DNA from: Stentor roeselii
Taxonomy: Eukaryota > Ciliophora > Heterotrichea > Heterotrichida > Stentoridae
Assembly (NCBI GenBank): GCA_006503475.1
Contig: RSEH01000060.1
Location: 62,001-126,000, forward strand
DNA length: 64,000 nucleotides
Direction: 5' to 3'
Of the stretch, positions 2,981-62,006 are shown piece after piece. Numbering within the stretch: the stretch's first letter is position 1; the number at the start of each line of letters is the position of its first letter. Position numbers and translations under genes: made by a program. The notes under the pieces are model-generated. The model had not been told where the DNA came from, ran no database searches, and saw only the letters and a list, made by a program, of their open reading frames with translations.

Positions 2981-4462
2981 CTACTCTGCTGTTGACTTCC
3001 TTCTAACCATCTTCAACTTACGTCTTTCAACAGTCGAGCTTTTAAGTCCTGTGCGATTCACAATTTCAGTCTTTCCGAATACGAAACTTTCACGAACAGA
3101 TCTCGCTTTTGTAGTTTTTCTGCCGTCTGGATTCTGATTTTCTCTTTGAGGTGAAATTGAGACTGTCCTTTTCGCCTTTTTTGCATTTTGAGAATAGCCT
3201 CTGCCGAAGTTGTTTCTTTTCTTGGAGTCTAGGACGGAAAAGTTGAGTTTTTCTCTGATTGGAGTTATGCAACTGCTTACTGTCCTGCTGTGAGCCGACT
3301 CGGAACGCCCTGGGTAGATCGGCTTGAAGGAGTTGTCGAATGTTAGACGGAATAAGGGCGGCTGAGGGTCTAAAGGAAGGCTTATGCTCAGGTTTCTGGA
3401 ACGGGTCTGGACTCTTGTTGGAGTTGGGTTGTCGAATGATGCACTTCCTCCATTTTTGATATGTTTTTTTAAGAGAAGGTAGTAACCTGTTGTGTTTGAG
3501 TTGTGTTTATTCGCCTCAAGACACTGCTTCACGTTTTCGGAATTTACTTTTAAGGATTCTAGCTTGCGCAGGATCCCGGCGTCGACTGGGATCTGGTCAT
3601 ACCCAACTAAAATACCCTGATAAGACTCCTCAGCGACTTGACTGAACCAAGGATGTTTTCTAATATCAGCAATTCCCGCTCGCGCTTCAGGATCCACGAC
3701 AAGTATCGACTTGATCAAGTCTTTCCCTTCAGGCGAAATATACTTGGGGAACTTATACTCACAAGCCAATATTTTCTTATAAAGCTCTCCGGTGTTGGGG
3801 TCCTCAAAAGGCAGATACCCACAAATCATAGCAAAAAGAATAACCCCCGCGCTCCAAATATCAACTTTCAACCCTTTATAAGTCTTTCCCGCAATCATCT
3901 CAGGAGCAGCATAACAAGGACTTCCACATGCAGTTTTAAGTTCCTCTCCTGTTTTATAAGTATTGCTAAGTCCAAAGTCCACAATTTTTATGCGATTTTG
4001 ATGATCTAAAAGAAGATTTTCAGGTTTCAAGTCGCGATGCACGATGTTAAGTTTATGGATGTACTCAATTCCTGAGACGATTTGATGGAAAAACTTGCAA
4101 GCTTCCTTTTCCTTCAGTCGGGTGTTAGCGACTATGTGATCGAAAAGCTCTCCTGATGCGGCGAATTCCATGATTAGGTAGATCTTGCGAGGAGTTTCAA
4201 TTATTTCGTAAAGCTGAATAATCGTCGGGTGGCGAATCAACTTGAGGATGTGAATTTCTCTTGAAACTCGCTCGATGTCAGAAATATCGATGATTTTGTC
4301 TTTTTCAAGGACTTTTATTGCCACGTTTTCTTTCGTTGGGATGTGAACTCCCAGCTTCACCTTGCCGAAGGTGCCCTCGCCTATTGACTTCACGATGGAA
4401 TAGTCGCCGATTGTCTTGGGTGTTGTTGAGTCATGCTTCGAAGTCCTAAGTGAAGTTTACAT
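2981..4462 (-). CDS. SNF1/AMPK-type serine/threonine kinase catalytic subunit (two exons, start codon split by intron)
   Basis: Spliced product is 488 aa: exon 1 is just two bases (4461-4462, 'AT'), then a 15-nt intron (4446-4460), then exon 2 (2981-4445). Splicing gives MTSKHDSTTP followed by IGDYSIVKSIGEGTFGKV. The kinase domain spans about residues 15-270: Gly loop GEGTFGKV, VAIK lysine near 45, HRDLKPEN near 138, DFG near 157, T-loop LKTACGSPCYAAPE with Thr at about 172 (aligned with AMPK Thr172), DIWSAGVILFAM, and HPWF at the end. A UBA/AID-like segment may follow (about 285-325); the rest of the C-terminus is basic and low in complexity, without a clear beta-binding domain. SNF1 kinases are energy-stress regulators. 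Without the intron the frame lacks an upstream ATG, which supports the split start. All catalytic residues are present. Confidence 0.9.
4446..4460 (-). other. 15-nt intron interrupting the ATG
   Basis: Sense sequence GTAAACTTCACTTAG. It has GTA/TAG ends and an A at position 10. It sits after the AT of the start codon, so the unspliced message reads ATG-TAA while the spliced one reads ATG-ACT-TCG. Confidence 0.85.
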
Positions 4463-4566
4463 TTAAATGATTTTAAGAAATTTTTGAATGAAAAGAATTA
4501 GTTGAAGTCACGAGGATGATTAATGGAATTTGAATTTTTTCTTATAGAAGAGTTTATATTAAAGGA

Positions 4567-6237
4567 ATGATTCACCCTTTTCATCCACATTCTAATTCGC
4601 ATACGGAACTTAACCGGGTGCATAAAAGAAGACTTACGGACTTTTACCATCTTCAGGCTTCGAAATCGATTTCGCCTTCGAAGGCTTTTAAACACTTGCA
4701 GAAGACGAAGGAATTGAAAAATGATCGAAAGTCGTTTAAACCTGTGGAGAATTCAATTGAATGTCAAATGTTCAATAGGAATAACTTGATTAGGATGGAA
4801 ATTGAGAAAGAACCTGAAAGTTTTAAACATAAACATACAGTCAGTGAAGAAATTTCTAAAATAGTAGGCGCTTTTACTTCTAGATCTCGTCATTCACTTG
4901 ACTTTCAGTTTTTTCAGTCGTCGAAAAACTTAAAAAATGAGAAAAAACTTACAGAAAAAGTGGAAAAAAACCAGAATCAGATTAAGCAGCAAGAGAAATA
5001 CCTGATGACGGAAAAAATAGGTTTATCTCCAGTTAAATCAAAAATATTTGCACAATCTGGGTCTCCGAAAGCAGTCATCGAAAGTACAAAAAGGAATTCC
5101 TTAGAAGCAAGCGTTTTAAACGACAAAATCACAGTAAATTCGCAAACACTTGCTAAATCAGGGCCCCAGGTTCTTCAATACCTATGCCATCGTCTTACCT
5201 CTTTCGAAAAATCTGAACTTCTTGACTACCCAGAAGTATTTTTCACAGGTAACATCTTAAAACGACCTGAAATCCCTGTACATTCATTAAAACTAGACGA
5301 TGAACTAGGCAACCTAATCCTGTTACCCGGTGATCACGTAGCCTACCAGTTCGAAATCATTGAAAAACTGGGCCACGGGAGCTTTGGTCAAGTTTTCAAA
5401 GTTCTTGACCACAAGACATGCACATTAAAAGCCCTTAAAGTCATTTCTTCAGGTTCCAAGTTCCAAGACCAAGCTTTTGTGGAGGTGAAAATTTTAAGAT
5501 TTTTAAAAAAATTGGACAAAGATGAAACTTATTCAATTGTTCATATTGAAGATTATTTCTCTTTTAGGAAACATTTTTGCATCACTTTTGAATTACTTAG
5601 CTTTTCTTTGTATGATGTTCTCAAAAAGAATAACTTTCAAGGAATTAGTAACTCGTTGATTAGAAGATTCGCTTCGCAGATTTTACGTTGCTTGATGTTG
5701 CTTCATAGTCATAAAGTTGTTCATTGTGACTTGAAACCTGAAAATATTTTGTTGAAAAATCAGAACCGATCGGTTGTTAAGGTCATTGATTTTGGATCTT
5801 CTTGTTTTGAGAGGGAAAAGGTTTTTGATTATGTGCAGAGTAGGTTTTATAGAGCACCTGAAATTGTTTTAGGAGTTGAGTATGGGTGTGGTATTGATGT
5901 TTGGAGCTTTGGATGCATATTAGCTGAACTTTTCATCGGAAAACCTATCTTGCCTGCTCGAAATGAAGCTGATTTATTGATGAGAACTGTTGAGCTGATC
6001 GGAAATCCACCTGAGGAACTGTTGAGGAGGGCACGTAGAACGAAGGATTTTTGGGTTGGAAGAATATGGAGGGCTACTGAAAAAGTTAAGTTTAGAAGAC
6101 CCTTAGGGAGGAGTATTGAAAAAATTCTCTTTGGAGCAGATGAACCTTTTATTGATTTTGTAAAGTCATGCCTTAAATGGGATCCGAATGAAAGAATTTC
6201 TCCCAGTCAAGCTTTGGATCATCCTTGGTTGAAATAA
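4567..6237 (+). CDS. DYRK-family dual-specificity kinase
   Basis: 556 aa from the ATG at 4567. A basic, Ser-rich N-terminal region of about 230 residues precedes a DYRK homology box ('LDDELGNLILLPGDHVAYQFEI') and the kinase domain: GHGSFGQVFK, LKALKVI lysine, HCDLKPENILL near residue 390, IDFGSSCF, and the DYRK signature QSRFYRAPE. The activation motif reads FDY instead of YxY, so the first Tyr is replaced while the second, which DYRKs autophosphorylate, is kept. The domain ends with DPNERISPSQALDHPWL. Cys in place of Arg in HCD is normal for DYRKs. It is one of three DYRK genes in this window. It is divergent from the SNF1 kinase, with 104 bp between the start codons. Confidence 0.9.
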   Translation: MIHPFHPHSNSHTELNRVHKRRLTDFYHLQASKSISPSKAFKHLQKTKELKNDRKSFKPVENSIECQMFNRNNLIRMEIEKEPESFKHKHTVSEEISKIVGAFTSRSRHSLDFQFFQSSKNLKNEKKLTEKVEKNQNQIKQQEKYLMTEKIGLSPVKSKIFAQSGSPKAVIESTKRNSLEASVLNDKITVNSQTLAKSGPQVLQYLCHRLTSFEKSELLDYPEVFFTGNILKRPEIPVHSLKLDDELGNLILLPGDHVAYQFEIIEKLGHGSFGQVFKVLDHKTCTLKALKVISSGSKFQDQAFVEVKILRFLKKLDKDETYSIVHIEDYFSFRKHFCITFELLSFSLYDVLKKNNFQGISNSLIRRFASQILRCLMLLHSHKVVHCDLKPENILLKNQNRSVVKVIDFGSSCFEREKVFDYVQSRFYRAPEIVLGVEYGCGIDVWSFGCILAELFIGKPILPARNEADLLMRTVELIGNPPEELLRRARRTKDFWVGRIWRATEKVKFRRPLGRSIEKILFGADEPFIDFVKSCLKWDPNERISPSQALDHPWLK

Positions 6238-10065: not shown

Positions 10066-10977
10066 ATGGATTCTGCCTCTGATACGGAAATTTTAGAGGA
10101 AAAAGTTGAGGTGAAGGAAGATAAGGAGATCTTGTTAACCGACATCATCCCTCAAAAAAGAATGCGCGACTTTCCCTGGAGTTCAAGTATTCCAGAGTCA
10201 ATCCCACTAATGCTAGCGAAAAACCACAAAAATGAAGACCCATCAGGTTGGTGGATAAGTGAAAAACTCGATGGTGTTCGATGTTACTGGAACGGAAAAA
10301 CCTTCATATCCAGGACAGGTAAGCCTTACTACCCTCCAGATTTTTTCACATCAAACCTTCCTCCAGACATAAGCCTTGATGGTGAGTTATGGCTCGGTCG
10401 TAAGCAGTTCCAAGAATGTGTTTCAATCGCGAGATGTTCAGACAACGGTAAAAACGACATGCAACGATGGCACAAAATGAAATACATGATCTTCGACGTG
10501 CCTTGTCTCGACCTGCCATTTGAAGAAAGAATTTCTTTTTTGCATGCCGTTGTTCAGACCGTTCAAAACCCTTACTTAACAATTGTAGAACAGGTCAAAT
10601 GTCAAGGATTGGAACATATGTTTAAAGTGCTTGAACAAGTTGAAAAGAAGGGTGGAGAAGGCATCATGCTTAGGAAACCTCAAAGCTTTTATCAGGGGAC
10701 TAGATCAAATATTTTACTTAAGGTCAAAACTTTCATGGATGATGAGGCGACTGTCGTTGGGTATGAAGAGGGAAAAGGAAAGTACTTAGGTCAGATTGGT
10801 GCTTTAAAAGTAAGAAATCGGAAAGGAAAGGAATTCAAAATCGGATCGGGACTTAATGATCATGACAGGATTGAACCTCCTAAAATCGGAAGTCTTGTCA
10901 CTTTTAAGTACCAGGAACTAAGCAAGGATGGTATTCCCAGATTTCCTACTTTTTTCAGGAAATTCGAAGGGACTTAA
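10066..10977 (+). CDS. Small ATP-dependent DNA ligase (Lig E/bacterial-like)
   Basis: 303 aa from the ATG at 10066; a TTG at 10051 is in frame. It carries nucleotidyltransferase motifs: I is SEKLDGVR with the adenylated Lys near residue 67, 'FISRTGK' matches motif Ia, 'SLDGELWLGR' is motif III, 'YMIFDV' IIIa, 'GGEGIMLRKP' IV, and 'LLKVKTF' V. A C-terminal OB-like domain ('ATVVGYEEGKGKYLGQIGALKVR') is of the minimal-ligase type. There is no N-terminal DNA-binding domain as in eukaryotic Lig I, III or IV. The core matches compact bacterial, viral and kinetoplastid ligases, so ancient lateral transfer is possible (inference). The 40-residue N-terminal extension is acidic. It should seal nicks; which repair pathway it serves is unknown. 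Confidence 0.85.
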   Translation: MDSASDTEILEEKVEVKEDKEILLTDIIPQKRMRDFPWSSSIPESIPLMLAKNHKNEDPSGWWISEKLDGVRCYWNGKTFISRTGKPYYPPDFFTSNLPPDISLDGELWLGRKQFQECVSIARCSDNGKNDMQRWHKMKYMIFDVPCLDLPFEERISFLHAVVQTVQNPYLTIVEQVKCQGLEHMFKVLEQVEKKGGEGIMLRKPQSFYQGTRSNILLKVKTFMDDEATVVGYEEGKGKYLGQIGALKVRNRKGKEFKIGSGLNDHDRIEPPKIGSLVTFKYQELSKDGIPRFPTFFRKFEGT

Positions 10978-14718: not shown

Positions 14719-15585
14719 ATGGAAAACAATAATGACGACTTCGGGCCAGAAGACTGGGGAGTCGAAGGTTACGATCCTCCTAAAACCTGCTTAGACGGTT
14801 CAAGGTCAACATCCATGGGAATTGGCAAACGTCAACTTTTCACCGAAGCCTTTATAAAACAAAAGCCAAACACCGAGCCCTGCAAATATTCTCAAACTCT
14901 TCAAAAGTCACAAAAAGAGTTCTGGTTAAGTAAAAACTTAAAGTTTCCTAAAGCAAAGCGTGAAACAAACACATCTTTAGCAATGAAAAGAAGCAGATCA
15001 ACTCCAGGTCCAGGTCATTACAGCAGCGATTCTCTGAAGCTGAAGCCGAAGAGCAAGTTAGGTTTTTTCAGGTACTTTTCATTTAGTTACGTCGACCGAG
15101 GGTGCTTTTTAGATGATGTCGTAGCGAAAAGTCAACAAGTTCCTTCTTCACATAAATATCGGCCGGTACTTCAACCGAAGCAAAAATTATCAGCGAACCC
15201 GATTTATCATAAACCTTATTTAAAACCTGCAGCTTTGAAGAAAGATGTCGTCGGTCCTGGTGTCTATCAGGTTGATGAAGCTATTTCTAAGTTTTGTATG
15301 AAAAAATCGTCTACTTTGAGTATCGCGAAATCGAAAAGAGATTGCTTTGCTCAGACTAAAGCGAAACAAAAAGGATTTGTACCTGGGGCTGGGACTTATT
15401 CTGTTGTTTTTAATAATATTTCGTTTGTTGCTGAGAAAAATAAAGTTTCTGAAGATAGGCAAAGGGTTATTAAGAAAAATTCGAAAGTTGTTAGAATTAC
15501 TGATAAAGTTGCGAAGGATAAAGATTGGGTACCTGGACCTGGAACTTATTATAATAAAAAGAAGGAAGTGCCTGATAATGATTAA
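14719..15585 (+). CDS. SHIPPO/STPGR (sperm-tail PG-rich repeat) protein
   Basis: 283 aa after removal of a 15-nt in-frame intron at 15072-15086. Four SHIPPO-type repeats are visible: 'STPGPGHYSSDSL', 'VVGPGVYQVDEAI', 'FVPGAGTYSVVF' and 'WVPGPGTYYNKK', spread from about residue 95 to the C-terminus. This family (STPG, ODF3/CIMAP-like) lines the lumen of axonemal microtubules and stabilises doublets (established knowledge). A role in cilia or the cortical microtubule bands is therefore likely. Splicing changes FFR-YFSFS-YVDRG to FFSYVDRG. The intron is invisible as a frame disruption because its length is a multiple of three. Confidence 0.85.
   Translation: MENNNDDFGPEDWGVEGYDPPKTCLDGSRSTSMGIGKRQLFTEAFIKQKPNTEPCKYSQTLQKSQKEFWLSKNLKFPKAKRETNTSLAMKRSRSTPGPGHYSSDSLKLKPKSKLGFFRYFSFSYVDRGCFLDDVVAKSQQVPSSHKYRPVLQPKQKLSANPIYHKPYLKPAALKKDVVGPGVYQVDEAISKFCMKKSSTLSIAKSKRDCFAQTKAKQKGFVPGAGTYSVVFNNISFVAEKNKVSEDRQRVIKKNSKVVRITDKVAKDKDWVPGPGTYYNKKKEVPDND
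15072..15086 (+). other. 15-nt in-frame intron in SHIPPO gene
   Basis: Sequence GTACTTTTCATTTAG, phase 2, with GTA/TAG ends and A at position 10. It keeps the frame open when unspliced, adding five residues. It fits the same template as the introns that are required elsewhere in this window. Confidence 0.75.
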
Positions 15586-17199: not shown

Positions 17200-17841
17200 T
17201 CACTGCTTAATTTTCTCCTCATCAGTAATCTCATTAAAAGCCCTCTGCAACATATCAGAAGCCATTTTATACCTATTTTTGCTTTCCTTGACAAACCCTC
17301 TTTCATAATAAGACCTAGTCCACTTACTAAGAGTAGCTCTATCAATATCAAACTTCTCACAAATCCCAAAGCGAGTACTACACTTTTCAGCCTCCTGGAC
17401 CAGAAACTCTTTAGAAACAGCAGTAAACTTATCCTCAATAAACTTTTGTTTTTTTCCCTTTCTCAACCCCTTAAACAAAGAGTCACTTGTGACTAACTCA
17501 ATAGGTTCAGGTCCTCTAACAACTTCCTTTTTTTCTTTTCTACTCTTCACAGGTCTCGGATTTTTCCTTTTCCTTCTAGTAATACCTTGAGCTTGTTTTA
17601 AAATTAAAAAAATATTCTGGTCAATTCCAAAAACCTTATTCACAACAAGCAATCCTTTTTTTTTCCCAATCTTTAAAATTTCCTTTCGAATTTGTTTAAA
17701 AACCTCGAAGTTAAAAGCAGAAACTGCCAAATGAATGACTTTTTCTCTTGGAATTTTCAGGATTTTCGTTGAAAAATTAACTCCTTTAAAAAGTGTGATC
17801 AAGGCGATGTCCTGATCGGTAAGGCCCCCCTGATTGGACAT
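17200..17841 (-). CDS. HTH-like basic protein overlapping the upstream kinase by one base
   Basis: 213 aa from the ATG at 17841-17839. The start codon shares its A with the TAA stop of the DYRK gene upstream on the same strand, so the junction reads TAATG. An N-terminal region of about 100 aa is helical. A Lys/Arg-rich linker (about 90-115) and a C-terminal unit 'TRFGICEKFDIDRATLSKWTRSYYERG' follow. That unit reads as a helix-turn-helix like those of transposases and Brinker/CENP-B-type DNA binders. I do not recognise a specific family and see no catalytic domain. The frame is also open upstream, but without an ATG. It is followed after 30 bp by the MORN gene. Confidence 0.65.
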   Translation of the reverse strand: MSNQGGLTDQDIALITLFKGVNFSTKILKIPREKVIHLAVSAFNFEVFKQIRKEILKIGKKKGLLVVNKVFGIDQNIFLILKQAQGITRRKRKNPRPVKSRKEKKEVVRGPEPIELVTSDSLFKGLRKGKKQKFIEDKFTAVSKEFLVQEAEKCSTRFGICEKFDIDRATLSKWTRSYYERGFVKESKNRYKMASDMLQRAFNEITDEEKIKQ

Positions 17842-19355
17842 TATAAATCGTTTACTACATTTATATCTAAAAGAGATTTCATCAGCCTTCTTTTTTTCTT
17901 CGGTTTCGGCTGGGGTTGGAAGGAAGACTGGATCCAAGGGTGGTCTAAGGCTTCAGCAGCAGAAGGTCTCAATTCAGGAGCCCATTGAAAGATCTGAGTT
18001 AAAAAGTCAACAAAAAGTGCCACATCACTACCTAAAAAGCTTTCCAAAGGTCGACTTGCAGGTTGTCTTAATTTTCCCCGAGAATTCGGAACTATTCGAA
18101 GATTTCCTGAACTATCAAAAAAAACACTTTTTCTTGAACTTAGGTCTAAGAGGGGCTTTGGAGGTACTCCGATGACTTCAGCGATTCTTAAAAATTGCTC
18201 AGATTCATTTTCACCTGGGAATATCGGGTACCCCATGTAAAGTTCAGCTAAGATGCACCCGAAGCTCCACATATCAATTGCCTGGGAATAGGGAATTCCA
18301 AGCATAACTTCAGGGGCTCTGTAAAATCTTGACTGGATGTAAGTGTAAATCTTTTCGTCTTCGAAACAACCTGAGCCGAAGTCAATGATTTTTATTCCGC
18401 ATTTGTCTCGATGTTTTAAAAGAATGTTTTCTGGTTTCAGGTCACAGTGAACGATGTTTAAACTTTGTACGTATTGAAGACTTACAAGAAGTTGAATTGC
18501 GAATTTTGATACTAGACTCATTTGGAAACCTTGGAAAGAGTTTAGCTTTAGAAGGTCGTAAAGGCTTATTGAAAGAACTTCGAATACTAGGCATAGGTGG
18601 CTTCGGAAGGTGAAGTGGTTTTTTAGACGGACTATGTTGTAGTTGTCTTCGGGGTCTTGGTCTTTTAGAGTTTTTAGTAATTTTACCTCTACTGCTCCTT
18701 GCTTGTGGAACTTACGTTTGTTTCGTACGATTTTTATTGCGAAGACTTCTTTTGTTTTGTGGTCTGTGCATTTGCAGACTTGGCCGAAGGAACCTTTGCC
18801 GATTATGTTTATGATTTCGTAACGAAAATCTAGATGATCTCCAATCACAATCTTATAGTCCCCTTTATCATTATCATATCCAAAATTAGGTAAATTCGGG
18901 TCAGGACCAACTTTTTTACTTCCTATTCCAAGAAAATAAACTGTTTTAAATTCCATCATTTCCCGTTTTTCCAATTCACAAAGATAATCTCCATAACTTT
19001 CAATAGCTTTTTCAGCAGTTGTTGGTAAATTATTGAGTCTCTTATGAGGAAAAAAGAAAGAATCAGCTCTAGCCTTTGTAGTTTGAATGGAGTTATTCGA
19101 AGGGCTATACATGGAAAAATTGATTCTTTTTGAAGTACGAGTAGATAATAGTCCAGAAATTTTCCTTCTTGATGTGGCAGTATCTTCATTGACAAAGCTG
19201 TTGACTTTCACATGTAAATTCGGTATTTTCGAAGGATTTTGAGTGTTTTTAACGCGAGTCTCTTCAGACCTGTTCTTATTTCCCAGTTTAATTTTTGAAC
19301 TGGTGTTGTAAACCGCCTTCATCCGTTTCTCTCGAAGACTAATTTTGATAGACAT
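17841..19355 (-). CDS. DYRK-family dual-specificity kinase
   Basis: 504 aa. A Ser/Lys-rich N-terminus (about 1-125) precedes the DYRK homology box ('DYKIVIGDHLDFRYEI') and the kinase domain: GKGSFGQVCK, VFAIKIV lysine, HCDLKPENILL, IDFGSGCF, the intact DYRK activation motif YTYIQSRFYRAPE, and DALDHPWI near the end. A basic tail (KPKKKRR) may serve as a nuclear signal. All catalytic residues are present, so it should be active after Tyr autophosphorylation. The stop codon overlaps the start of the next gene. The upstream gene's stop is only 17 bp from this ATG. It is closest in layout to the DYRK at 57275-58810. Confidence 0.9.
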   Translation of the reverse strand: MSIKISLREKRMKAVYNTSSKIKLGNKNRSEETRVKNTQNPSKIPNLHVKVNSFVNEDTATSRRKISGLLSTRTSKRINFSMYSPSNNSIQTTKARADSFFFPHKRLNNLPTTAEKAIESYGDYLCELEKREMMEFKTVYFLGIGSKKVGPDPNLPNFGYDNDKGDYKIVIGDHLDFRYEIINIIGKGSFGQVCKCTDHKTKEVFAIKIVRNKRKFHKQGAVEVKLLKTLKDQDPEDNYNIVRLKNHFTFRSHLCLVFEVLSISLYDLLKLNSFQGFQMSLVSKFAIQLLVSLQYVQSLNIVHCDLKPENILLKHRDKCGIKIIDFGSGCFEDEKIYTYIQSRFYRAPEVMLGIPYSQAIDMWSFGCILAELYMGYPIFPGENESEQFLRIAEVIGVPPKPLLDLSSRKSVFFDSSGNLRIVPNSRGKLRQPASRPLESFLGSDVALFVDFLTQIFQWAPELRPSAAEALDHPWIQSSFQPQPKPKKKRRLMKSLLDINVVNDL

Positions 19356-22130: not shown

Positions 22131-22250
22131 AAACTAAAAAAGGGTAAATCTTCAAAACCACCAAAAATCTAATCATTAAAAATCAATCCTAAAAATCTCA
22201 TCATTAAAAACCTAAAAATTATCATCAAAAATCCACCCTTTATAAACACA

Positions 22251-23385
22251 ATGGAACTAGAAAATTCATTCATCCATCTTCATCAAACCTTTACATCTCT
22301 TCTAAAATCTTTGATATCTCGTCGTTTTTTCTTTACTTTCCTAAACATTCACTACGAAACAACTGTCTTCAAAGCTCAGCAAACCTCAGGAAAGCTAAAA
22401 CCTTCCGACTCTACTAAAGCAGAAGAGGTAAAAATCGACCCCAAGGTCGAAGAAGCCTTGGAAGCCGCTAAAAAGGTCTGGACTGGGACTCAGCCTTTAG
22501 AAAGCAAAAGACCTGGACTTAAAAAGCCTTCAGAGGTGAAAAGACCTGAACCAAAACGACCTGAAGTAAAAAGACCTGAGGTTAAAGGAAAAAAACCTGT
22601 TGTGAATCACCCGATGCCTGTAGTTTTAACAGAAATCAACCCTTTGGAGGTTTATTCTGTCTCGGCTATAATGGTCAACCCGGAACTTATGGAGAAATAT
22701 CAGGACATGAAAGGAAGATATTCAAGTTCTCTTGGATCTAACATGGGAGGGCTAAGTCAAGGCAGAAAAGCTGAAATGACTGCGAAAAAATCATTTTTTA
22801 CCAAACTCAATAAAAAGTTCACTAGTAAAAATATTAGAACTGATATTGACCAGATGGCTAGTGTTGCTTATACTGCATTTAAAGTAGTTGGAGAAATCGA
22901 TCTTATTGTTAATGATGAGGATATCATTCGCTCTTTCTTTGAACTCGCCTCTAAACCACTTCTTAACTTTAAAAAAAAAGAAGAAAGGGCAAAACTCTGC
23001 AGAGCTTGCTTTACTTTAAATATAATTCAGCAGTCCTTAGAAAGTATTCAAAAAATTAACTCTCAGGAATGTTTCGAAATCGCTGAAAGGTTTGGAAACT
23101 TGGTTGAAAATGGAGCTGGAAATTTCGAAGTGATTGAAAAACTCGACAGTTTTTCAGTTGAAAAAAGTATTTTGAATGAACTCGTCAAATGTTGCACCCG
23201 GGAAGAAGTTCAAGAAGCTGTTGAAAAATACCGAAAACTTGATAAATGGAGACTTGGAAATGAAATAAATAAGTTCGTGCAAGGAAACATGTATTCAACT
23301 AAATCTCTTCCAGGACTTCGAGTTATCCACAGCCTAGCCTGTAAAAAAGGCAGGTCTTTTTGCACATTCACTAAAATTTGAATAA
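22251..23385 (+). CDS. Unknown protein with KRPE-type repeats; possible 16-nt intron near the end
   Basis: Unspliced, it reads 376 aa and ends at a TGA (23379-23381). Splicing out a candidate 16-nt intron (23322-23337) gives 373 aa ending at TAA (23383-23385). Residues about 84-115 hold a short Lys-Arg-Pro-Glu repeat (KRPE/KRPEVKRPEV). Residues about 175-355 are helical and probably globular. The N-terminal hydrophobic/basic stretch (SLISRRFFFTFLNI) is not a clean signal peptide. No family recognised. It is convergent with the RING gene, with 26-30 bp between stops. Confidence 0.6.
23322..23337 (+). other. Candidate 16-nt intron
   Basis: Sequence GTTATCCACAGCCTAG. It starts GTT rather than GTA, so it is weaker than the other introns here. 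Splicing replaces a TGA stop with TAA two bases further on and changes the last 15-20 residues. Tentative. Confidence 0.3.
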
Positions 23386-25333: not shown

Positions 25334-27779
25334 TATTATAGGTTAGAAATTAGAAAGATTAGTGATTGCATCTTTAAACATTGATGAGGAATATTTAGGA
25401 GAGTTGTGTGATTATAACAGACTTTAATAATTAGTAAATTTAGAGATTTTTTACCAGTTGCTTACAAATTAAATTTATTGTTGAAGCTCAGTGTCTTGAT
25501 TATTATATTTATTCCATCACTTAGGGTTAATAGAAATTATGATCAGATACTTCCTCAATACAAATGACACTAGTTATGTTGATAGTATATACAATAATAA
25601 GATCATGATTGGTAATTTAAAAATTAACAAGAATATTCCCAGAACTTCTACAAATGCTAAAATAGTTAAAAAAGAGCCTATATCAATGCTAGGAATAATT
25701 TTATATTGAGCAGAATCAAATCTTAGATTAAAAGTCGCATATATTTATATCATTAATTGTCATTCACTTGAATAGTGTTATATTTATTCTAAATTTAGAC
25801 TAAGACTTTCGATCATACTACATTTTTCATATTTTTGCATTTTTAATAATAGGACTAAGTTTGATTTTATATTCTTAGAGACTTTTTGTAAAAGAAATTT
25901 AAAGTTTAGATAATGTATATCTTTTGCTTCGGTAATAAATTTTCATGCTTATTCAAAGTTAATCCTAGAAATCAAAAAATCTTCAGAAATTAATGTAATA
26001 AATAGCAATTTTTTAAAAATTATAAACTAGCCTAGATGAAATATTAGGAAAAAGGATATGCTCAAACTAGTTACTGAAAAAAGCTTAAGTACTCTTAGCC
26101 TACATATTAGCTTTTCTATCAAAAGTTGATCATTACTTTAAATGAATATCATTTTTGATTTCTCTTTATAATTTCAAGGTAAATATTTCAGTACTTAGCT
26201 CTAATTGATTATATATTATTAAAAGTTATCTGAAGTTTGCGTATTTCTGTCAAGAAGCTGACGGTTTGGATTATCGCAATCGACTTATTCAACCTTTTGA
26301 TTTTTCACATCAAAAGACAAAGCACTTGCATGTTAAAATTTGATGAAGCATAAGCTACACGAATAAGGCTTCTGAGCAGATTTAAGGTATGGATACTCTT
26401 CAAATTTGCTTACTTGCAAAATCCTTTACGTAAAATCACAAGTGAGCCTATAGACTAAAAATGAGGAGTCTGAAGGTGTTTTTTTAAGTTCAGCATAAAA
26501 GAATAATCCTTTCCACAGTCATTTTTTATGCAGAAAGATTTTGTTATGAGTAGTTCCTGTACTCCTTTCATTTATTTCTGCTTTTTATATTTCCATTTTT
26601 CAAAGGAAATCCAAAACATATTTTAACTTGGAATTATATTAATATGAAATATATTCTAAGAAAGTACGAAGAATTTTAATTGAGTTTTATTTGGAATGGC
26701 CTTTTTTTAATAAAATTTAGATAATTAGGTTATAAGAAATGATTTCAAAGTCACGAATTAAAATTTTGGTTATTGAAATTTTTAATAGGAGGATTTTTAA
26801 GATTTTATGGATTTGGCTTTGAGGAGAAAATTTTCAGTTTTTTTGAAAATATTATTTAAAAATGAAGAAATCGTTTTTCGTTATCTAAATAAATGCTACT
26901 ATGTATGATTTCAGTATAACTGAGAGTTTACCAAATATTCATATATATTAAAACTTTATAATTTACAAAGAATTTTTGGAAATTAAAGTTCAATTTTATC
27001 TGCTATTATGCAATAGAAAATGAATTGTATTGAAATTAATTCAAAAGTGTTAAATACAATCATTTTATAATAAAGAATTCCAGACTTCAAAAAATCAACA
27101 TTTTTACCCTTTATAATCATTCAAAATTTCACCAAAAGGGAGATACTATCAATCATTACTTCAGATAATTTATCAAAACTTACTGATCAAAAAGCTACCT
27201 TTGAAAAATTCTCTTTAATTCCAAAAATTTCATAAAATTTCATAAAAATAAATACTCTTGCTTATTTTCACTCTTTCATCTTCATCATTACCAAAACCCA
27301 AGATTAAACTATTCCAAGTGCAGCATATTTATTTTGACACATTATTTGAATACCTTAAAAACAAATTTTTTATAAAAATGCTTATAAAGATCAGTCTTGC
27401 CAAAGAAAAAGAGTTTTATTAATCCCACTGAGCAATTTGTTTGTCACTTAAAAACTAAAAATTTGCAATTGATCAATCAGATGAATCAGAAGAATAATTA
27501 TAGAAACGGTAAAATTTTCAAATAGCTGGAGATCTGTATCATTTTGTATCTGATTTAGAGTTGACTCAATGTGCTTGGTTTGATTGATAAGGATGACTGT
27601 TGATATTTTTAAGCAATATATATCAGCTATTTAGGGTTAAATCCTTCAAATTCTCGTGAAATCTAGATTCAATCAACCTCGTGAAGTTCATTTTCATTAA
27701 CATTCATAAATTTTCATAAGACTCAAATTAAGACTAGCTAGACAATACCTAGTTTAACCTAGTTGAATTATACCCAGCC
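25334..27779. other. Gene-poor AT-rich region
   Basis: The longest stretch without an intact gene in the window. Apart from the decayed zinc-finger copy at 26285-26571 I see only AT-rich sequence with many stops in all frames. The decamer TTAGGGTTAA occurs at 25521 and 27631, but not in tandem. No tRNA-like T-loop/anticodon arrangement was found. Confidence 0.45.
26285..26571 (-). pseudogene. Decayed three-finger C2H2 zinc-finger gene copy
   Basis: Reading minus from an ATG at 26571, the first 40 or so codons parallel the intact gene at 27780-28091: 'FCIKNDCGKDYSFMLNLKKHLQTPH' against 'CCMHNNCGKNFTTRFNLKRHIEIVH'. An in-frame TAG follows, and finger 2 is then scattered over two frames ('YRLTCDF' in one, 'RKGFCK*ANLKSIHT' in another). 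Finger 3 appears in a third frame as 'KPYSCSLCFIKF*HASAL', with the two zinc His replaced by Asp and Gln. At least two frameshifts and three stops mark it as dead. It probably arose by local duplication of the neighbour 1.2 kb away and is slightly richer in G+C than its surroundings. Confidence 0.75.
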
Positions 27780-29876: not shown

Positions 29877-29889
29877 ATTGGAGGGATAA

Positions 29890-30426: not shown

Positions 30427-31014
30427 AATATTAAATAGTTAGAAAATAAAATGAGTCTTTCTAGAGTTGGAGAAATAAAGAAATTTCTTAGTTTGAATTT
30501 TCTAGAAGGTCTTTTAAAAATCTTTGCTTTTATCATGAAAGTTATCAAAGATTTTGACTGTAAGTTTAGATTTAGTGAAGGACATGAAATATTTTAATGA
30601 AAATTAAAATGCAAATTTTTGATATGTTAAAAGATAATTTGTGGATTTATTTATTGGAACTTATGTTCTCAATGTGGCCTATGACTTTATTATTACTAAT
30701 AAAATTCAGAGAGATCTAATTGTAATCGATAATGTTGAAATCAATTTTTGTAATTTTCTTAAGAATTATTATTTGAAGTAAATCTTTATGATAATGATCA
30801 TAAGTTGATATAATTGAAAAACTCATCATTTATATTAAAAGACAACACAAAACTCAGTATTGAATATTTCCAAGGTAAGGCTTAAATTAATTAAAGATTC
30901 TAAAACTTGAAGAAAAACTTATTACTGATAATAAAATGCGCTAATTGATTCGTTTGTTAAAAATTTCTCATTTTTATTGGATATTTCTTTGGAATAAAAT
31001 GAGTTTATAATAAC
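30427..31014. other. AT-rich intergenic region
   Basis: Between lipocalin and zinc-finger genes on the same strand. No gene, RNA or repeat recognised. Confidence 0.35.
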
Positions 31015-32617: not shown

Positions 32618-35017
32618 CTACCTAATTACAAACCTAATCAACTTCTCATCCTTATCAGGCAGTACCCCATCCAAAAAACAGTTTTTACTAATCCCGATTT
32701 TCTGACAAAATAAAAAACAACTAAAAATCATCAAACTTTTCGAATCCTCCTCATCCACCTTCTCTAAAAATTCCTTTAAAAGCTGAATAGGCTGATGCAA
32801 GCCAAGCAAAAGCCGAGACCTGAAAACACTGACCCATTTTCCCTGAAATTCATAAATTCCCGCGAAAATCACATAACTCCTCAAAGCAGTCGCAGTTAAA
32901 ATCATTTGATGCAAGTCGAAAAATCCTTCAAAAGTTTTCAGTGCTTTCACAAAGAGACTCAAAAGGAAATCTTGAGGTTCCTTATGAAGAGCGTATGCGA
33001 AAAGTATTAAAAAACGAGTCAAACTTTGCAAGTTTTGACTGGAAAAATTTTCTTGAATCTGAGAATTTTTTTTAAATTCGATGAAAAAAGTTTCGAGTCT
33101 TTGAATGAAAAAATCGAAGCCGAGTTTTTGACTGATTTTTATTTTTTTTGTGATTTTTGTTGTTTTTATTGAGATATTTTGAAGGGATGGAAGGGGGAGT
33201 AAGGATAAAAACTGATTCGCTGAAAAAATTGGAATGTTTTTTTGGAATAATTTAGGAATATCTGCGAGTTTTTCGAGGATTCTTAGCATTTTGCATCCTT
33301 CGACTTGTTCTGCAAGGGAAATGATTAGATGAACAGGGAATTCGATTCCTAATTGCTCAGACATTACTATTAAAGTAAGTTGAACTGAAAGTTTCAGCTT
33401 AGAAAAGTGTTCTTTTACCAGATAAAGCATCAACTTGTTGATAGGGAGCTTGTGGTCGATAGGGATTAGAAGTGGTAGCAAGTGACAAAGTCCTGACTCT
33501 ATTTCTAGTTTTCCGAATAATTGTTTGTGTCCTCCTGCTTGATAAGGCAAAACAGCAATAGCAGCTGAGACAGGTGAAAACTTCAAAATACTTCCAAGTA
33601 ATTGACTTAAAATTCTTGCAAAAGTCCAGAGCTGGTTACTTGAAATAGTGAAATAAGAAGCCCATAGGTAATTATAAAGGTCAATATGAAGAGAAACCTC
33701 TGAAATAAATAAATCTGCAATAGTAAGACCCGGGTTAGAAGTAAATAAAAATAACCTAAAAGACCTGAGTTTTGTACTTTTCTTAGAAAGTTCATTCAAG
33801 TAGTCACTAAGCGATTTTTTCCTATTTTCAGCGATATGTAGAAGTTGATGAACTTTTGTCTATATAAACAATACTGTATCCAAATCATCCACTGCCTGAA
33901 TCAGAGGCGCTTCAACTTCAAACGGATTTTCCTTAATCTTGAAAATTCCATTCAGAGTTAAAATCTGAGCAAAATCTTCAAAAAGTATGAAAGAAAGAGT
34001 CTAACTAGTCCTTACTTTTCCCATCTCAACCCAACTTTTCCATATAATGCAAGTCTCGTGGCTGAGGTGAATCCATTCTGTGTAGTTCACATCTTTTTCC
34101 TTTTCCAAGCATCCTCCACAAATACAGAGTTTTTCATTGACTTCTTGGATTTCAAGTGTTTTTGTTTTGAAGAATGGAACTTGTGCTACGATTGTTATTC
34201 CAGGATCGATGCAGATTATTAAATTTTTCCATAAAAAGTAAAAATCGAACCCTTCTGGAACCCAGAAATTTGAGACTGTGTTGTTGAAATCGTGTACTTC
34301 GAATATTTTCATTCTTTGACCGGTCACGACTCCTACCATTTTCTCAGATTTCATTGGGCAGACGTTTCCGGTCCATAAGACTTTGGAAATTTCGCATTTT
34401 TCTTCTAAAATTTCTTTTGAATTCGTGCAGAATACTCCTTGCTTACTGAACAATAAGACCTGATCTTCTATTGTTTCAGTTTTGATTAAGTCAAACTGAA
34501 AATTAACTTTATTGATGAGATTTCCTTGAAATAAATCAATTACCCAGAGTGAATTTCTAAGACTTATAAGTAAATTGTTAGAAATCACATCAATTCCTAA
34601 GAAGTCCTTTCCTTTAACCTTGAATATACTGACCTCTAAGTGATTTTCAAAAGGTCTATCCCTATTTATCATGCATCCTCCAAGCATATCTAATAGACTA
34701 TCTTGTTTCGAGTCTCTCAAAAGTGAAAAAAAGCTTTTCGATATAAACTTTCTCCATTCAAGCGCAAGAGAATCATCAATCAAGCTCAAAACAGGTAAAA
34801 TTAAAACAGTTCCATCTACAGTCAAGATGATCAACTTTTCAGTGTACAAAGTCATTTGCACTACAGCCATTTCTTTGATCTTAAACCACGGAAGGACTTT
34901 TTGTATAGAAGAGTGATAAATCAACGAAGAGCCATCATAAAGAAACGTTCCTTTTCTATCACTGCAAGATTTTATTACTTGATGGTTTAATACTTGCAAA
35001 ATTTCATAGCTTTCCAT
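32618..35017 (-). CDS. Unknown 789-aa protein, propeller-like N-half and helical C-half (three exons)
   Basis: Two apparently separate frames are one gene once two 15-nt introns (34001-34015 and 33860-33874) are removed. Exon 1 (34016-35017) encodes 334 aa, exon 2 (33875-34000) 42 aa, and exon 3 (32618-33859) 413 aa, all in phase. The first 330 residues are strand-rich with repeating '..LLIS.RNSLWVIDL' and '..VLLFSKQGVFC' elements, like a WD40-type beta-propeller. Exon 3 is almost wholly helical and Leu-rich, like the solenoids of coat, tether or nuclear-pore proteins. That propeller-solenoid layout is suggestive only; I do not recognise the family. The downstream frame has no ATG of its own, which supports the fusion. 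The ATG at 35017 is divergent from the dynein gene. Confidence 0.8.
33860..33874 (-). other. 15-nt intron 2 of the propeller-helical gene
   Basis: Sense sequence GTATTGTTTATATAG, with A at position 10. It lies between codons, and its in-frame TAG would otherwise end the protein. Confidence 0.9.
34001..34015 (-). other. 15-nt intron 1 of the propeller-helical gene
   Basis: Sense sequence GTAAGGACTAGTTAG, with A at position 10. Unspliced, its in-frame TAG would stop translation at residue 338. Spliced, the frame continues through exons 2 and 3. Confidence 0.9.
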
Positions 35018-54655: not shown

Positions 54656-56245
54656 ATGACCAGCATGTCGAAAAGTTTCAAAGATTTAGATGAAATCGAC
54701 AAACCCGCTGCCCTTGTTTCCTTGATTTTCGCGAATAGGGGAAAAAGTCAATTGTTTGGCCTGGAAAGGTTTAAAAACTTGGTAAATGTTAAATAGATTG
54801 AACTGGATTTATCAGGAAATGTTTTGACTGTCGCTGTTCCTGAACTTTTGTTATTAAAGTACTTGAAAAAGCTGAATTTATCGAAAAACTCGATCTTGGA
54901 AATATGGGAAATACCAACGAGCATTGAACAGCTGAATCTCTCTGAAAATAAGATCTGTTCATGTGAAGGGGTCTTGCCTGGACTGGTGAAGTTACAGTCG
55001 CTTAATATTTCGAGCAATTTTCTTACTTCTATCAAACCTCTGAGTTCTTTAACGAGACTCAAGACCTTGAATGCCAGTTTCAATCAACTTGAGTCCACTG
55101 TTGGACTTGAATGTTGCAAAGATCTTATTGATTTGAACTTAGAGTCAAATAATATATTGTCCTTGACGGGATTTTTAGCGGAAACTTCAGTCTGTTTATT
55201 TAATTTAAAAAATAACCCTTGCAGTACTCAAGGATGTTTTAGTGACTCTGGAGGGTTTGAACAACTTGGATTTTTCATGCAGGATGATGGAGTTTTTGTT
55301 AGAAATGCTGCGGAAGCGAAAGCTTATCTTAAGGCTAAACTCTCTGGACGTAAGTCGAAAAGAGAAGAAAAAAAGAAACCTGGCCCGAGTTTTCGATCTC
55401 GGAATACAAGTATGCAAGAGATTTATGATCAGGTCATCAATGAAGACCCTGAAATGGAAGAGTCTTTCAATCAAAGTGAAAGTGAAGAAAATTTCACACA
55501 TTCAGAAGAACAAGCCAAAAAAAGTATTGTACCTGTTGCAAAGCTACAACTTGAGAAAATTTTAGATAAACAAAACGACAAAGTTTCTGCTGAAAAGTGG
55601 AGCACAAAACCCGAGAGCATTGAAATGATGTTAGAGGATTTTATTCAGTTTTGTGGATTGAACGAGTTTAGTGATAAAGGAAGCTCTTCCGATAAGTATG
55701 AAGCGCTTTTTAGGGTTTTAAAACAACGTGAAGAGGAAAGGAAAAGTATTCAAAAGGCTTATGATGAACTATTACAACAATCAGAGGAACTGAAGCAGCA
55801 AGTTTTTCAGTTTCAGGTTGATCAGAGGGAACAGGATGGGCTTATTGAATGTCTAAGGCACGAGAATAATAAAGTACAATGTGAAGTTGTTACTTTAAGA
55901 AAACAAGCAAGTGACTTGAATTCTTCTTTGATTGATATCAAACTTAATTTCGAGAAAAATGAAGTAAAACTTGTAGAAAGGATTAAGACTCTAGAAGATG
56001 AAAGAAACTCTTCTCGGTTCAACTTTTCGTATTCATGTGAAAGTGAGGCTAGTCTGATGACTGACTACAATGACACTGAAATCAGAAGTTTTGTAAATAA
56101 TAATCAAGTTCTCGTTCCAGTGGAAGTAGGAGAGTACATCCAAAAACTCTTAAATAAAATCTCAAGTCTTGTGACCAAAAACAAAAAACTACGTTCCCAA
56201 ATCGACAAATACAGAAGCCTACTGAACTCTAAACCAAAAAACTAA
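54656..56245 (+). CDS. Leucine-rich-repeat plus coiled-coil protein (two exons)
   Basis: 524 aa: exon 1 (54656-54781) adds 42 residues, MTSMSKSFKD to FGLERFKNL, joined across a 15-nt intron to exon 2 (54797-56245). Residues about 43-180 hold LRRs of the SDS22-like class ('LKYLKKLNLSKNSILEIWEI', 'SIEQLNLSENKICSCEGV', 'LVKLQSLNISSNFLTSIKP', 'LTRLKTLNASFNQLES', 'LIDLNLESNNILSL'). Basic and acidic linkers follow, then a coiled coil (about 300-415) and a second short one near the C-terminus. This plan occurs in ciliary and centrosomal proteins such as LRRCC1 and CEP97-type LRR proteins. A basal-body role is plausible but inferred. Confidence 0.85.
54782..54796 (+). other. 15-nt intron in LRR gene
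   Basis: Sequence GTAAATGTTAAATAG, phase 0, with A at position 10. It contains the TAG that otherwise separates the first 42 codons from the rest of the LRR frame. Confidence 0.9.
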
Positions 56246-57274: not shown

Positions 57275-58810
57275 TTACACCTTCGAATCCCTCCTCGATT
57301 TCCTAGGACTGGGGTTCAAAGCACTAGCAAACCAAGGAGACTGCAAAGCGATTTCAGGGGTCAAGCGACAATCAGGGTTCCACTGAAGACATCCTGTCTA
57401 ATCCTTACCAACAACTAGTTCAAAAAAATGTTTATCGCCAGAAGGCAGAACTTGCACCAACGGGCGAGTAGCGGGGTACCTGACCTTGCCTTTTGAATTT
57501 GGCAGCATTCGAGGATTGTTGCTGCTGTCGAAGAAGATTTTCCTCTTCGTGGCTTTATTCAAGACCTCAGCAGGCGGAACTCCAATCGCCTCCATGATAA
57601 GCTGCAATTGTTCAGCTTCAGACTCTCCAGGAAACAAGGGTTTTCCATTGACAAGTTCAACAAGAATACACCCAAAAGACCACATATCAATCGCAGTAGT
57701 GTAAGGAATACCTAGAATAATTTCAGGAGCTCTATAAAACCGACTTTGAATATACGTATAAATTCTTTCTTCCAACAAACATGAAGACCCAAAATCAATA
57801 ACTTTAATTCCAGACTTGTCAACTTTTTTAAGTAAAATATTTTCTGGTTTCAAGTCGCAATGAATAATATTTAAACTTCGAGTGAACTTCAAAGCGATTA
57901 AAATCTGAACGGCGAATCGGTTCACAAGCCGATGAGAAAGTCCTTTAAACCCGTTATTTTTTAGTAGTTCATAAAGACTGATAGAAAGTAATTCAAAGCA
58001 AATGCAAACATGTTTCCGGAAGTAAAAAAAATCAGCAACATGAATAACATTGTTACTTTTATCCTTATCCTTCTTTTTCAAACTTTTCAGTATTTTTATC
58101 TCGATTTCAGCCTGATGATGGTACCTTCTTTTATTTTTAATCAATTTGATCGCAACAAAATCTTTAATTTTATGATCGAAACATTTGCAGACCTGCCCAA
58201 AAGATCCTCTTCCAAGCAACTGCAAGATTTCATACCTATAGTAAATATGATCTCCTTTATAAAGCTTGAAATTCCCATTTTCATCATCAAAGTTATTCCC
58301 ATTGTCTGCCTTAGGACACTTAAACCCCATATAATAAATTTCTTTTACCGCCTGCAACTCGTTCTGCTCAAAATTTGAAAGATGCGGCTTGAAGACCTTC
58401 AAAGCTGTTGACGGGGTCACTGGAAGTGAAAGTTTTTCAAACTCTTCTTGAAGGTTCTGAATTTTTACCTCTTGCTTCGGCTCTTCTCGAGATCTTGACG
58501 GAGGCTTCGGGGTCAACTTTTGACTTGAGTTTAAAGAGTTAAGAGAAGTGTTTAATGAATAAGTCACAAAGTTCTGACGCTGAGAACAACTTGAACTTTT
58601 CGCTGTTTGGGGAATGAGGGGCACTGACGGCTTGAATATTACTAAAGTGTTGTTGTTTGAGTTTGACTCGGAATTTGAGACTATTGAACTGATTGCTGAG
58701 ACTAGAGTTGATGCTGTTATTTTCTTTTTATGTTGAAGGGATGTACTGCGAAGAGCTTTTAGTTCATCTACTCTTGAACGTGGTGTCATTCTTATACTAG
58801 TTGAACTCAT
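57275..58810 (-). CDS. DYRK-family dual-specificity kinase (two exons)
   Basis: 506 aa: exon 1 is 57409-58810, then a 15-nt intron ending CAG (57394-57408), then exon 2 (57275-57393). Without splicing the kinase would end early at 'HFFELVVGKD'. With splicing it continues 'CLQWNPDCRLTPEIALQSPWF', the expected end of a DYRK catalytic domain. Features: Ser-rich N-terminus (about 1-145), DYRK homology box ('NFKLYKGDHIYYRYEI'), GRGSFGQVCK, VAIKLIK, HCDLKPENILL, IDFGSSCL, and the activation motif YTYIQSRFYRAPE, all intact. It is closest in layout to the DYRK at 17841-19355. A basic C-terminus (PRKSRRDSKV) may be a nuclear signal. Confidence 0.93.
57394..57408 (-). other. 15-nt intron ending in CAG
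   Basis: Sense sequence GTAAGGATTAGACAG, phase 1, with A at position 10. It shows that a CAG 3' end is used here as well as TAG, because splicing restores a textbook kinase C-terminus. Confidence 0.9.
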
Positions 58811-60326: not shown

Positions 60327-62006
60327 ATGGATATTTTTGAACTGTTGTCCACAGTAACCTTTATCTAGGGCGACGAAGAAGACTGCTCCCTTGACGGACT
60401 ACTATTCGACCTAGATTCGCATCGAAATGAAGTGATTGAAATATCTCCTAATGAGAGGTACCACAAGGTAAGACTTATTCAGTTCGCTGAGGTCCTCGAA
60501 AAAACCGTTTTAAAAACTTCATATCGAGCAATCGACATTGAATTGGGATGTGAAGTCGCTTGGACTGAAATTTCTTTGAAAAAATTGAGCAGGGATGAAA
60601 TTAGTCAACTTTCGACCCGAGTGATAATGAATAGAAAATTCCAGCATAAACACTTGAAGTCTGTTGTTTCTTCGTGGGTCCTGCAGAACTCGAAGATTTT
60701 AGTCTTAATTAGTGAAATCGTCACTGGCGGGTCGCTTTTAGAGTATCTTAATAGACTTCCTCAGTCTACTTTGAGACTTGCACAGGTATGGGGAAAAGGG
60801 ATTTTGATGGGGTTGGACTACTTGCATGGACTTGTCCCACTAATTGTCCACAGAGGAATTACAACAAAAACCATAAGAATAATGTCAAGTGACGGTACAA
60901 TAAAACTAACCGATTTCTTCATAAACCAAGTTTTCACAGCAGATCCTTGGGAAGTAGAAGACCCGTGGTTCAGTGCCCCTGAGACCTTCGAAGGAAGATT
61001 CACTCAAAAGTCTGACATATACAGTTTCGGAATGGTTCTTCTGCAGATCTTAACAAAGACCTGTCCGTACTCTGAGTGTCAGAAACTAGAAGATATATAT
61101 GAATGTATATTGAATAGAACTTTGCCCAAATCTCTTGAAAAAATCGCTGACCCTAGCATCAAAAGTCTCATCAAAGCTTGTCTTGCAGAGCCCAGTCAGA
61201 GACCTTCAGCGAAGGACTTGCTGAGCCATTCGTTTTTTGAAAGCATTTCAAGAGAGCCAACGAAAAATTTGCAAGACTTTGAAAGTGAGACAAGTCGAAA
61301 TGAGATTTTTGAAAAAGTCTTCAAAAAAGATAAAAATAATGGAAACTCAGAAAATCAAGAATTTTATGCAAAAAATAAAGAATTTGATATGAAAAATAAA
61401 GGATTTATAAAAAATAATCAAGAACTTGATACAAAAAAAGGATTTTACACAAAAAATAAAGGATTCAATGAATTTTATTTAGAATTCGATGAAGAAAGTC
61501 AAGGCCAGGAAGACCTTATCAAGAAAATTTCATTAATTATTTTAGACTCAAACAACAAACCAAGAAATGTATCTTTTGAATACGACACAACTATCGACAC
61601 ACCTGAAAAGGTAGCTCTTGAAATGGTTGAAAGCTTTCAAATGGGAAAAAAAGCAGTCAGCCTAGTCGCCGAGCAAATAAAAAAAAAGTTAGTCTTTGAA
61701 GAAGTATTACAAAAAAGCCCTAAAACTAGGGGAAAATTAGGATTTGAAGATGTAGAAAAACCTGTACTTAAAACCTCTTATTCGTTTGATGAGCTTAACA
61801 GTAGAGCCAACGATTCACTTGAAAGAAAGTTTAAGAAGATGTTGGCAACTTACTACACCCTGGGGGTAATTGATGAGGAGTTGATGGATGATCAATTTTA
61901 TAGAATGGTTAAGAATTTCCAAAGAGATATTGGGGTTGTTTCTGATGGAAACATAACTCATAATCTATATAGAAATCTTAAAGAAAGGGTTAGTAAGTAC
62001 TTTTAA
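60327..62006 (+). CDS. WNK-like pseudokinase with OSR1_C/PF2-type domain (two or three exons)
   Basis: About 549-554 aa. Exon 1 (60327-60353) encodes MDIFELLST. A 15-nt intron follows, and the main frame starts at 60369. A second, in-frame 15-nt intron (60468-60482) is predicted. With it removed, 'RYHKFAEVL' lines up with WNK 'RFLKFDIEI'. The kinase fold (about 45-310) keeps the WNK Lys in the Gly loop (LKTSYRAID) and the WNK 'EVAW', but HRD reads HRG, the following Asn is lost and DFG reads DFF. It should therefore be catalytically dead. 'FSAPETFEGRFTQKSDIYSFG' keeps the APE/D-x-Y-S-F-G fold core. Near residues 395-450 'FEYDTTIDTPEKVALEMVESFQMG...AEQIKKK' matches a PF2-like domain. The C-terminal 70 residues are unassigned. 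WNKs control ion transport and osmotic responses through SPAK/OSR1. Confidence 0.8.
60354..60368 (+). other. 15-nt intron 1 of the WNK-like gene
   Basis: Sequence GTAACCTTTATCTAG, with A at position 10, after nine codons from the ATG at 60327. The frame beyond has only a GTG as a later start (60432). Confidence 0.85.
60468..60482 (+). other. Predicted in-frame 15-nt intron 2 of the WNK-like gene
   Basis: Sequence GTAAGACTTATTCAG, phase 0, with A at position 10 and CAG at the end, as in the proven-style intron at 57394-57408. It has no stop, so it would add VRLIQ if kept. Removing it gives the better alignment with WNK kinases. Confidence 0.6.

What the first reader, a model, noticed from the sequence alone, without database searches (positions are those of the whole stretch)
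4446..4466. A start codon split by an intron (AT/G) in a SNF1-type kinase
The only way to give the kinase a Met upstream of its Gly loop is AT + 15-nt intron + G. Unspliced, the same ATG is followed at once by TAA, so the unspliced mRNA yields no protein at all. Splicing therefore acts as a perfect on/off switch for this energy-sensing kinase. Introns inside the initiation codon are rare.
Basis: partly seen in the sequence, partly recalled or inferred. Interest (0 to 1): 0.75.

Follow-up and report, generated by a model that had tools for sequence, protein, structure and literature searches.

The report
Tiny intron splits a kinase's ATG
A ciliate kinase gene appears to have one of this genome's usual 15-base introns inside its ATG start codon, so it only gets a start after ordinary splicing; this is unusual for one gene but expected a few times in such a genome, and nothing shows that it is used as a switch.

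Summary
On the minus strand, AT (4462-4461) + GTAAACTTCACTTAG (4460-4446) + G (4445) gives an ATG in frame with a 488-aa SNF1/AMPK-like kinase. The first genomic in-frame ATG (4171) lies beyond the Gly loop, and no other GT..AG shorter than 140 nt supplies a Met. The 15 nt fit published Stentor coeruleus introns: 15 nt, GTA, branch-point A at position 10. Five other introns of this class are supported in the window; one completes a truncated kinase domain. Leader shuffles rescue a Met in 0.02% with the published features and 0.46% with any 15/16-nt GT..AG. Unspliced, ATG is followed by TAA, as stated. The 'perfect on/off switch for an energy-sensing kinase' is not supported: AT|GTAA makes ATG TAA automatically; all 6 supported introns carry an in-frame stop if retained; a 396-aa fragment could still start at 4171; no AMPK regulatory domain was found; no RNA data were available. 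Introns in start codons are rare but known. Most likely an ordinary, constitutively spliced tiny intron that falls between T and G of the start codon.

The parts
4461..4462 (-). first two bases (AT) of the split start codon; end of the first exon (5' leader)
   Evidence: in-frame TAA directly upstream at 4463-4465
4446..4460 (-). 15-nt phase-2 intron GTAAACTTCACTTAG, A at position 10
   Evidence: published Stentor features
4445..4445 (-). G that completes the start codon; first base of exon 2
2981..4445 (-). exon 2: SNF1/AMPK-like protein kinase, 488 aa in the spliced form, stop TAG
   Evidence: Pfam Pkinase 3.8e-80; PDB AMPK alpha-1 7.3e-89
4379..4381 (-). first codon of the Gly-rich loop (GEGTF); no genomic in-frame ATG upstream of it in the ORF
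4169..4171 (-). first in-frame genomic ATG (MEFAASG...), after the Gly loop and the VAIK lysine; could only give a 396-aa truncated product
4463..4566 (.). 104-nt space between the kinase start and the divergent gene at 4567; no ATG on the kinase strand (68% of shuffles have none either)
60354..60368 (+). comparison intron, 15 nt, phase 0, supplies the Met of the 60369 ORF
54782..54796 (+). comparison intron, 15 nt, phase 0, supplies the Met of the 54797 ORF
34001..34015 (-). comparison intron, 15 nt, phase 0, first intron of gene 35017-32618
33860..33874 (-). comparison intron, 15 nt, phase 0, second intron of gene 35017-32618
57394..57408 (-). comparison intron, 15 nt, phase 1, CAG acceptor; removal completes a protein kinase domain
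   Evidence: Pkinase profile 1-212 unspliced, 172.6 bits; 1-263 spliced, 189.9 bits

Best explanation
A Stentor-type heterotrich ciliate gene for a SNF1/AMPK-like kinase carries one ordinary 15-nt spliceosomal intron between T and G of its initiator ATG. Normal, constitutive splicing joins AT and G; the scanning ribosome then meets this AUG first and makes the 488-aa kinase. If the intron is retained, the first AUG is followed by UAA and no full-length kinase can be made, as with the other supported introns of this window. Shown: sequence, frame, motif, the only short-intron solution, the same intron class elsewhere in the window. Inferred: that it is spliced, that splicing is constitutive, where transcription starts, and the organism.
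For: Only GT..AG under 140 nt that gives an in-frame Met. 15 nt, GTA start, A at position 10: in S. coeruleus 8173 of 8806 annotated introns are 15 nt and 8005 have the branch A at position 10. Of 31 ORFs of at least 200 codons, 4 have no ATG up to codon index 45 (the cut is mine; the next latest first ATG is at index 40). Two of the 3 others are given a Met by one full-motif 15-nt intron at the boundary, as this one is, and the third is the last exon of a two-intron gene. In 229 ORFs of at least 60 codons, the motif at length 15 rescues 3 ORFs, all late-ATG and long; at the 20 other lengths from 10 to 30 it rescues no late-ATG long ORF, and one other ORF each at 12, 18, 19 and 29. Motif count in the window 11, against 4.07 expected, 0 of 100 shuffles as high. 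A neighbour's intron is backed by homology. The predicted N-terminus has the length of AMPK alpha-2: ORF residue 6 aligns with residue 5 of chain 5iso_A (552 residues, which I take to be full-length alpha-2), and the new Met is ORF position 4. A frame-and-motif gene chain gave the same model. Trp supplied by TGG in 112 of 9412 codons of 12 ORFs fits the standard code of Stentor and not Blepharisma, where UGA is Trp.
Against: No transcript data. GTA..TAG spacing without the A is not enriched at 15 nt (18, against 22 at 13 and 18 at 19 and 22). With no motif demanded, GT..AG of other lengths also rescues late-ATG long ORFs now and then (1 at 17 nt, 2 at 26 nt, against 3 at 15), and split ATGs occur in 0-2 of 229 ORFs per length, including one other at 15 nt in an ORF within the span of the giant ORF. 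The lack of an ATG in the leader is itself unremarkable (68% of shuffles have none). A+T of this intron is 67%, below the published 75.6% mean. Two of 29 ORFs of at least 250 codons end at TGA; read as Trp, one stays open for the 50 codons looked at and the other for about nine (not followed). No genome is held for the window and no second Stentor could be compared.
Confidence: 0.88

Rival explanations
1. Regulated splicing of this intron switches kinase synthesis on and off, possibly helped by ribosome stalling on the AUGUAA start-stop of the retained form.
For: Retention does abolish the full-length product. AUGUAA in the 5' leader of Arabidopsis NIP5;1 causes ribosome stalling and mRNA decay (PMC11915504, start of abstract in the listing).
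Against: AUGUAA arises automatically from AT|GTAA. All 6 supported introns in the window carry stops on retention. Nothing seen here ties splicing to a signal; the abstract of the Stentor intron paper says SR proteins are noticeably undetected.
Confidence: 0.05
2. No splicing here: translation starts at a non-AUG codon in the ORF, or downstream at 4171.
For: Near-cognate AGG, AAG, ATC, GTG and ATA codons exist between 4447 and 4384.
Against: It needs an unusual start although an intron with the published features gives AUG at the right distance. A start at 4171 loses profile positions 1-76 of the kinase domain. The stretch has no CTG, TTG or ACG codon in frame, and its one GTG (4393) is four codons from the Gly loop (that CTG and ACG are the better non-AUG starts is recalled).
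Confidence: 0.05
3. The gene lost its start (pseudogene) or the assembly has an error at the 5' end; the intron fit is a coincidence.
For: Only DNA was seen; a loose GT..AG rescue occurs in 0.46% of shuffles.
Against: The 491-codon frame is intact with a complete kinase domain; with the published intron features a rescue occurs in 0.02% of 20,000 shuffles.
Confidence: 0.02

Closest known systems
15/16-nt spliceosomal introns of Stentor coeruleus (PMC9505925, passages and section 2.1)
   Same: 15 nt, GTA donor, A at position 10, AG acceptor
   Different: position inside the start codon; the paper reports a bias to the 5' end of genes, and the phrase 'start codon' does not occur in its main text
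[quoted passage not shown]
   Same: intron inside or at the initiator ATG; phase 2 here
   Different: Yarrowia introns are much longer (median 196 nt over all introns); [quoted passage not shown]
AUGUAA start-stop element of Arabidopsis NIP5;1 (PMC11915504, start of abstract only)
   Same: the unspliced leader would hold AUGUAA
   Different: in NIP5;1 the AUGUAA lies in the 5' leader and acts in a boron-dependent way; here it exists only in unspliced RNA

Membership tests
Stentor-type tiny intron | length 15 or 16 nt | tested here: met
   15 nt; the only GT..AG under 140 nt that gives a Met
Stentor-type tiny intron | GTA donor and AG acceptor | tested here: met
   GTAAACTTCACTTAG
Stentor-type tiny intron | branch-point A at position 10 of a 15-nt intron | tested here: met
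Stentor-type tiny intron | removal confirmed in RNA | not testable with these tools
   no transcripts held
Start-codon-splitting intron | joined codon is ATG in frame with the protein, and no other ATG start upstream of the conserved domain | tested here: met
SNF1/AMPK-alpha kinase | kinase domain closest to AMPK alpha/SNF1 | tested here: met
   Pkinase 3.8e-80; best solved chain AMPK alpha-1 7.3e-89, MARK4 5.6e-82 (best 60 of 625 shown); no tree made
SNF1/AMPK-alpha kinase | AMPK-alpha C-terminal regulatory domain that binds beta and gamma subunits (recalled) | tested here: not met
   no Pfam match in the C-terminal 219 residues up to E 10; a divergent domain is not excluded
SNF1/AMPK-alpha kinase | activation by low energy | not testable with these tools
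   needs biochemistry

The most novel reading that the evidence does not exclude
Splicing of the start-codon intron is regulated, and the retained form, whose first AUG is an AUGUAA start-stop, stalls ribosomes and triggers decay, so that the level of this SNF1-like kinase is set by splicing of its start codon.
Probability: 0.04. Interest if true: 0.7.

Novelty: new member of a known kind. Interest (0 to 1): 0.27.

Why it matters
It is a clean case where an ORF caller that demands a genomic ATG would lose the start, or begin 92 codons late and drop the ATP-binding loop. It suggests a rule for annotating heterotrich genomes: look for AT|GTA.{6}A..TAG|G and A|GTA.{6}A..TAG|TG at the 5' edge of ORFs without an early ATG. 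As a regulatory device it is unproven.

Tried and rejected
Own-genome search for paralogues and other split starts: no genome is held. A first codon-score scan for introns used too strict a cut and returned nothing; a second gave 22 candidates of 15/16 nt, mostly chance by my reading. Rfam and tRNA scans of the window: nothing. NCBIfam gave 18 models, all below their cut-offs. Paper searches for the exact phenomenon: 'initiation codon interrupted' with start codon, intron and split (0 papers), 'within the start codon' with introns and phase (3), 'split start codon' with intron (2, one listed, a ribozyme tool), 'interrupts the start codon' with intron (0), 'split by an intron' with start/initiation codon (3,521 papers at 2 of 3 terms; the phrase has 0 occurrences in each of the 15 listed). 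These cover only open-licence PMC papers; the S. coeruleus genome paper itself is not held.

Rejected: a longer first exon with this intron (in-frame TAA at 4463-4465 blocks it); introns of 140-188 nt (24 combinations), whose donors lie at 4521 or further upstream and which do not fit 15/16-nt introns. Considered and not favoured as the organism: Blepharisma, because Trp is supplied by TGG (112 of 9412 codons) while UGA is Trp there.

Full report
What is there. The kinase gene lies on the minus strand. Its genomic frame opens at 4456, right after ATG TAA, and ends with TAG at 2981. The frame has no ATG before codon index 95 (4171), which lies after the Gly loop (first codon 4381-4379) and after the VAIK lysine. 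Taking out GTAAACTTCACTTAG (4460-4446) joins AT to G and gives MTSKHDSTTPKTIGDYSIVKSIGEGTFGKVKLG..., 488 aa. The codon upstream is TAA, so with this intron this ATG is the earliest possible start.

Is it chance? GT..AG stretches of 10-199 nt between 4700 and 4381 were removed in turn: 25 intron/Met combinations give an in-frame Met, and only this one is shorter than 140 nt. Shuffling the leader 4566-4446 20,000 times gave a rescue with GTA.{6}A..TAG in none, with GTA, A at 10/11 and AG (15/16 nt) in 0.02%, and with any 15/16-nt GT..AG in 0.46%. The TAG end of the strictest form was set after seeing the candidates; the second form uses published features only. The motif occurs 11 times in the window against 4.07 expected, 0 of 100 shuffles as high. 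The string ATGTA.{6}A..TAGG occurs once, with 0.08 expected and 7 of 100 shuffles holding at least one. Results on the other side: raw GTA..TAG spacing shows no peak at 15 nt; with no motif demanded, a split ATG turns up in 0-2 of 229 ORFs at each length from 10 to 30, and lengths 17 and 26 rescue 1 and 2 late-ATG long ORFs against 3 at 15; a leader of this make-up lacks ATG in 68% of shuffles anyway.

Internal controls. Of 31 ORFs of at least 200 codons, four have no ATG up to codon index 45 (the cut is mine, the next latest is at 40). Three of these (54797, 60369 and this kinase) are each given a Met by one full-motif 15-nt intron at the boundary. The fourth (32618-33859) is the last exon of a gene with two such introns, 34001-34015 and 33860-33874; a test of one intron at a time misses it. 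With the motif held but the length changed to any of the 20 other values from 10 to 30, no late-ATG long ORF is rescued (one other ORF each at 12, 18, 19 and 29); with the donor changed to the other 15 GNN forms, none either (one other ORF with GAA). A sixth intron, 57394-57408 (phase 1, CAG acceptor), is backed by homology: without splicing the kinase match stops at profile position 212 of 263, with splicing it runs 1-263 and rises from 172.6 to 189.9 bits.

Which organism. Trp by TGG (112 of 9412 codons in 12 ORFs) and 15-nt introns with A at position 10 fit Stentor coeruleus, which uses the standard code: 8173 of 8806 annotated introns are 15 nt, 8005 have A at position 10, and GUA is stringently conserved (PMC9505925, passages and section 2.1). 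Heterotrichs in general have about 95% 15-bp introns (PMC11441545, passage). Blepharisma has 15/16-bp introns too but reads UGA as Trp (PMC9942806, passages). Two of 29 ORFs of at least 250 codons end at TGA, and both stay open for some way if TGA is read as Trp; this was not followed. The name remains an inference; no genome is held for the window.

What the protein is. Pfam finds a complete Pkinase domain (3.8e-80). The nearest solved relatives, by the 60 of 625 shown, are AMPK alpha-1 (7.3e-89), SNF1-like kinase ssp2 (8.4e-84), AMPK alpha-2 (6.4e-83), then MARK, yeast Snf1, SIK, CIPK and MELK chains. The alpha-2 alignment starts at residue 5 of the 552-residue chain and ORF residue 6, so the junction Met (ORF position 4) sits about where alpha-2 begins. 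No Pfam match was found in the C-terminal 219 residues up to E 10. SNF1/AMPK-like is fair; energy sensing is not shown.

What it does. Splicing is needed for an AUG start of the whole kinase, but that does not make a special switch. A 15-nt GTA..TAG intron in phase 0 always ends in an in-frame TAG, and a GTAA donor in phase 2 always gives an in-frame TAA. All 6 supported introns in the window, this one included, carry an in-frame stop when retained; stop-free 3n introns would mostly be missed by this route (15072-15086 may be one), so the figure is biased upward. The unspliced RNA is also not fully silent in principle: a 14-codon ORF starts at 4434 and an in-frame ATG at 4171 could give a 396-aa fragment without the ATP-binding loop.

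How rare. [quoted passage not shown] PMC13309789 (passages) counts 42 introns in Yarrowia with the 5' splice site directly after A, T or G of the start codon, and reports that genes with introns in this region have the highest expression and the lowest variability over 12 conditions. For S. coeruleus, 8806 introns times 2 positions inside ATG over a median intron-gene length of 1230 nt gives about 14 expected by position, more with the reported 5' bias; this is my arithmetic on figures in PMC9505925. So the case is unusual for one gene and expected in the genome.

Verdict. A well-supported split start codon made by what looks like an ordinary tiny intron; the regulatory story is untested and not favoured.

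Noticed in passing
57275-58810 (-): A second kinase whose domain is completed only by removing a 15-nt phase-1 intron with a CAG acceptor (57394-57408).
   Followed up: yes
4567-6237 (+), 17841-19355 (-), 57275-58810 (-), 60327-62006 (+): Four more protein kinases beside the SNF1-like one in 64 kb; the last has an OSR1_C match.
   Followed up: partly
35375-49243 (+): A 4,622-codon ORF in which the gene chain found no intron; in 2-kb steps the AT skew is positive from about 36 to 48 kb (0.07 to 0.22). Not identified.
   Followed up: no
10066-10977 (+): A small ATP-dependent DNA ligase (303 codons; DNA_ligase_A_M plus DNA_ligase_OB_2).
   Followed up: no
15072-15086 (+): A full-motif 15-nt intron candidate inside an ORF that stays open if retained, a possible stop-free 3n intron.
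   Followed up: partly
4463-4566: Only 104 nt separate the start codons of the SNF1-like kinase and a divergently oriented kinase, so the two probably share one promoter space.
   Followed up: no
25343-32617: AT-rich stretch (down to 27% GC) with few long ORFs and three intron-motif matches (26885, 27734, 27759) that join no frames of 60 codons or more.
   Followed up: partly
22173-23381 (+) and 17200-17952 (-): The two ORFs of at least 250 codons that end at TGA; with TGA read as Trp the first stays open for the 50 codons looked at, the second for about nine.
   Followed up: no
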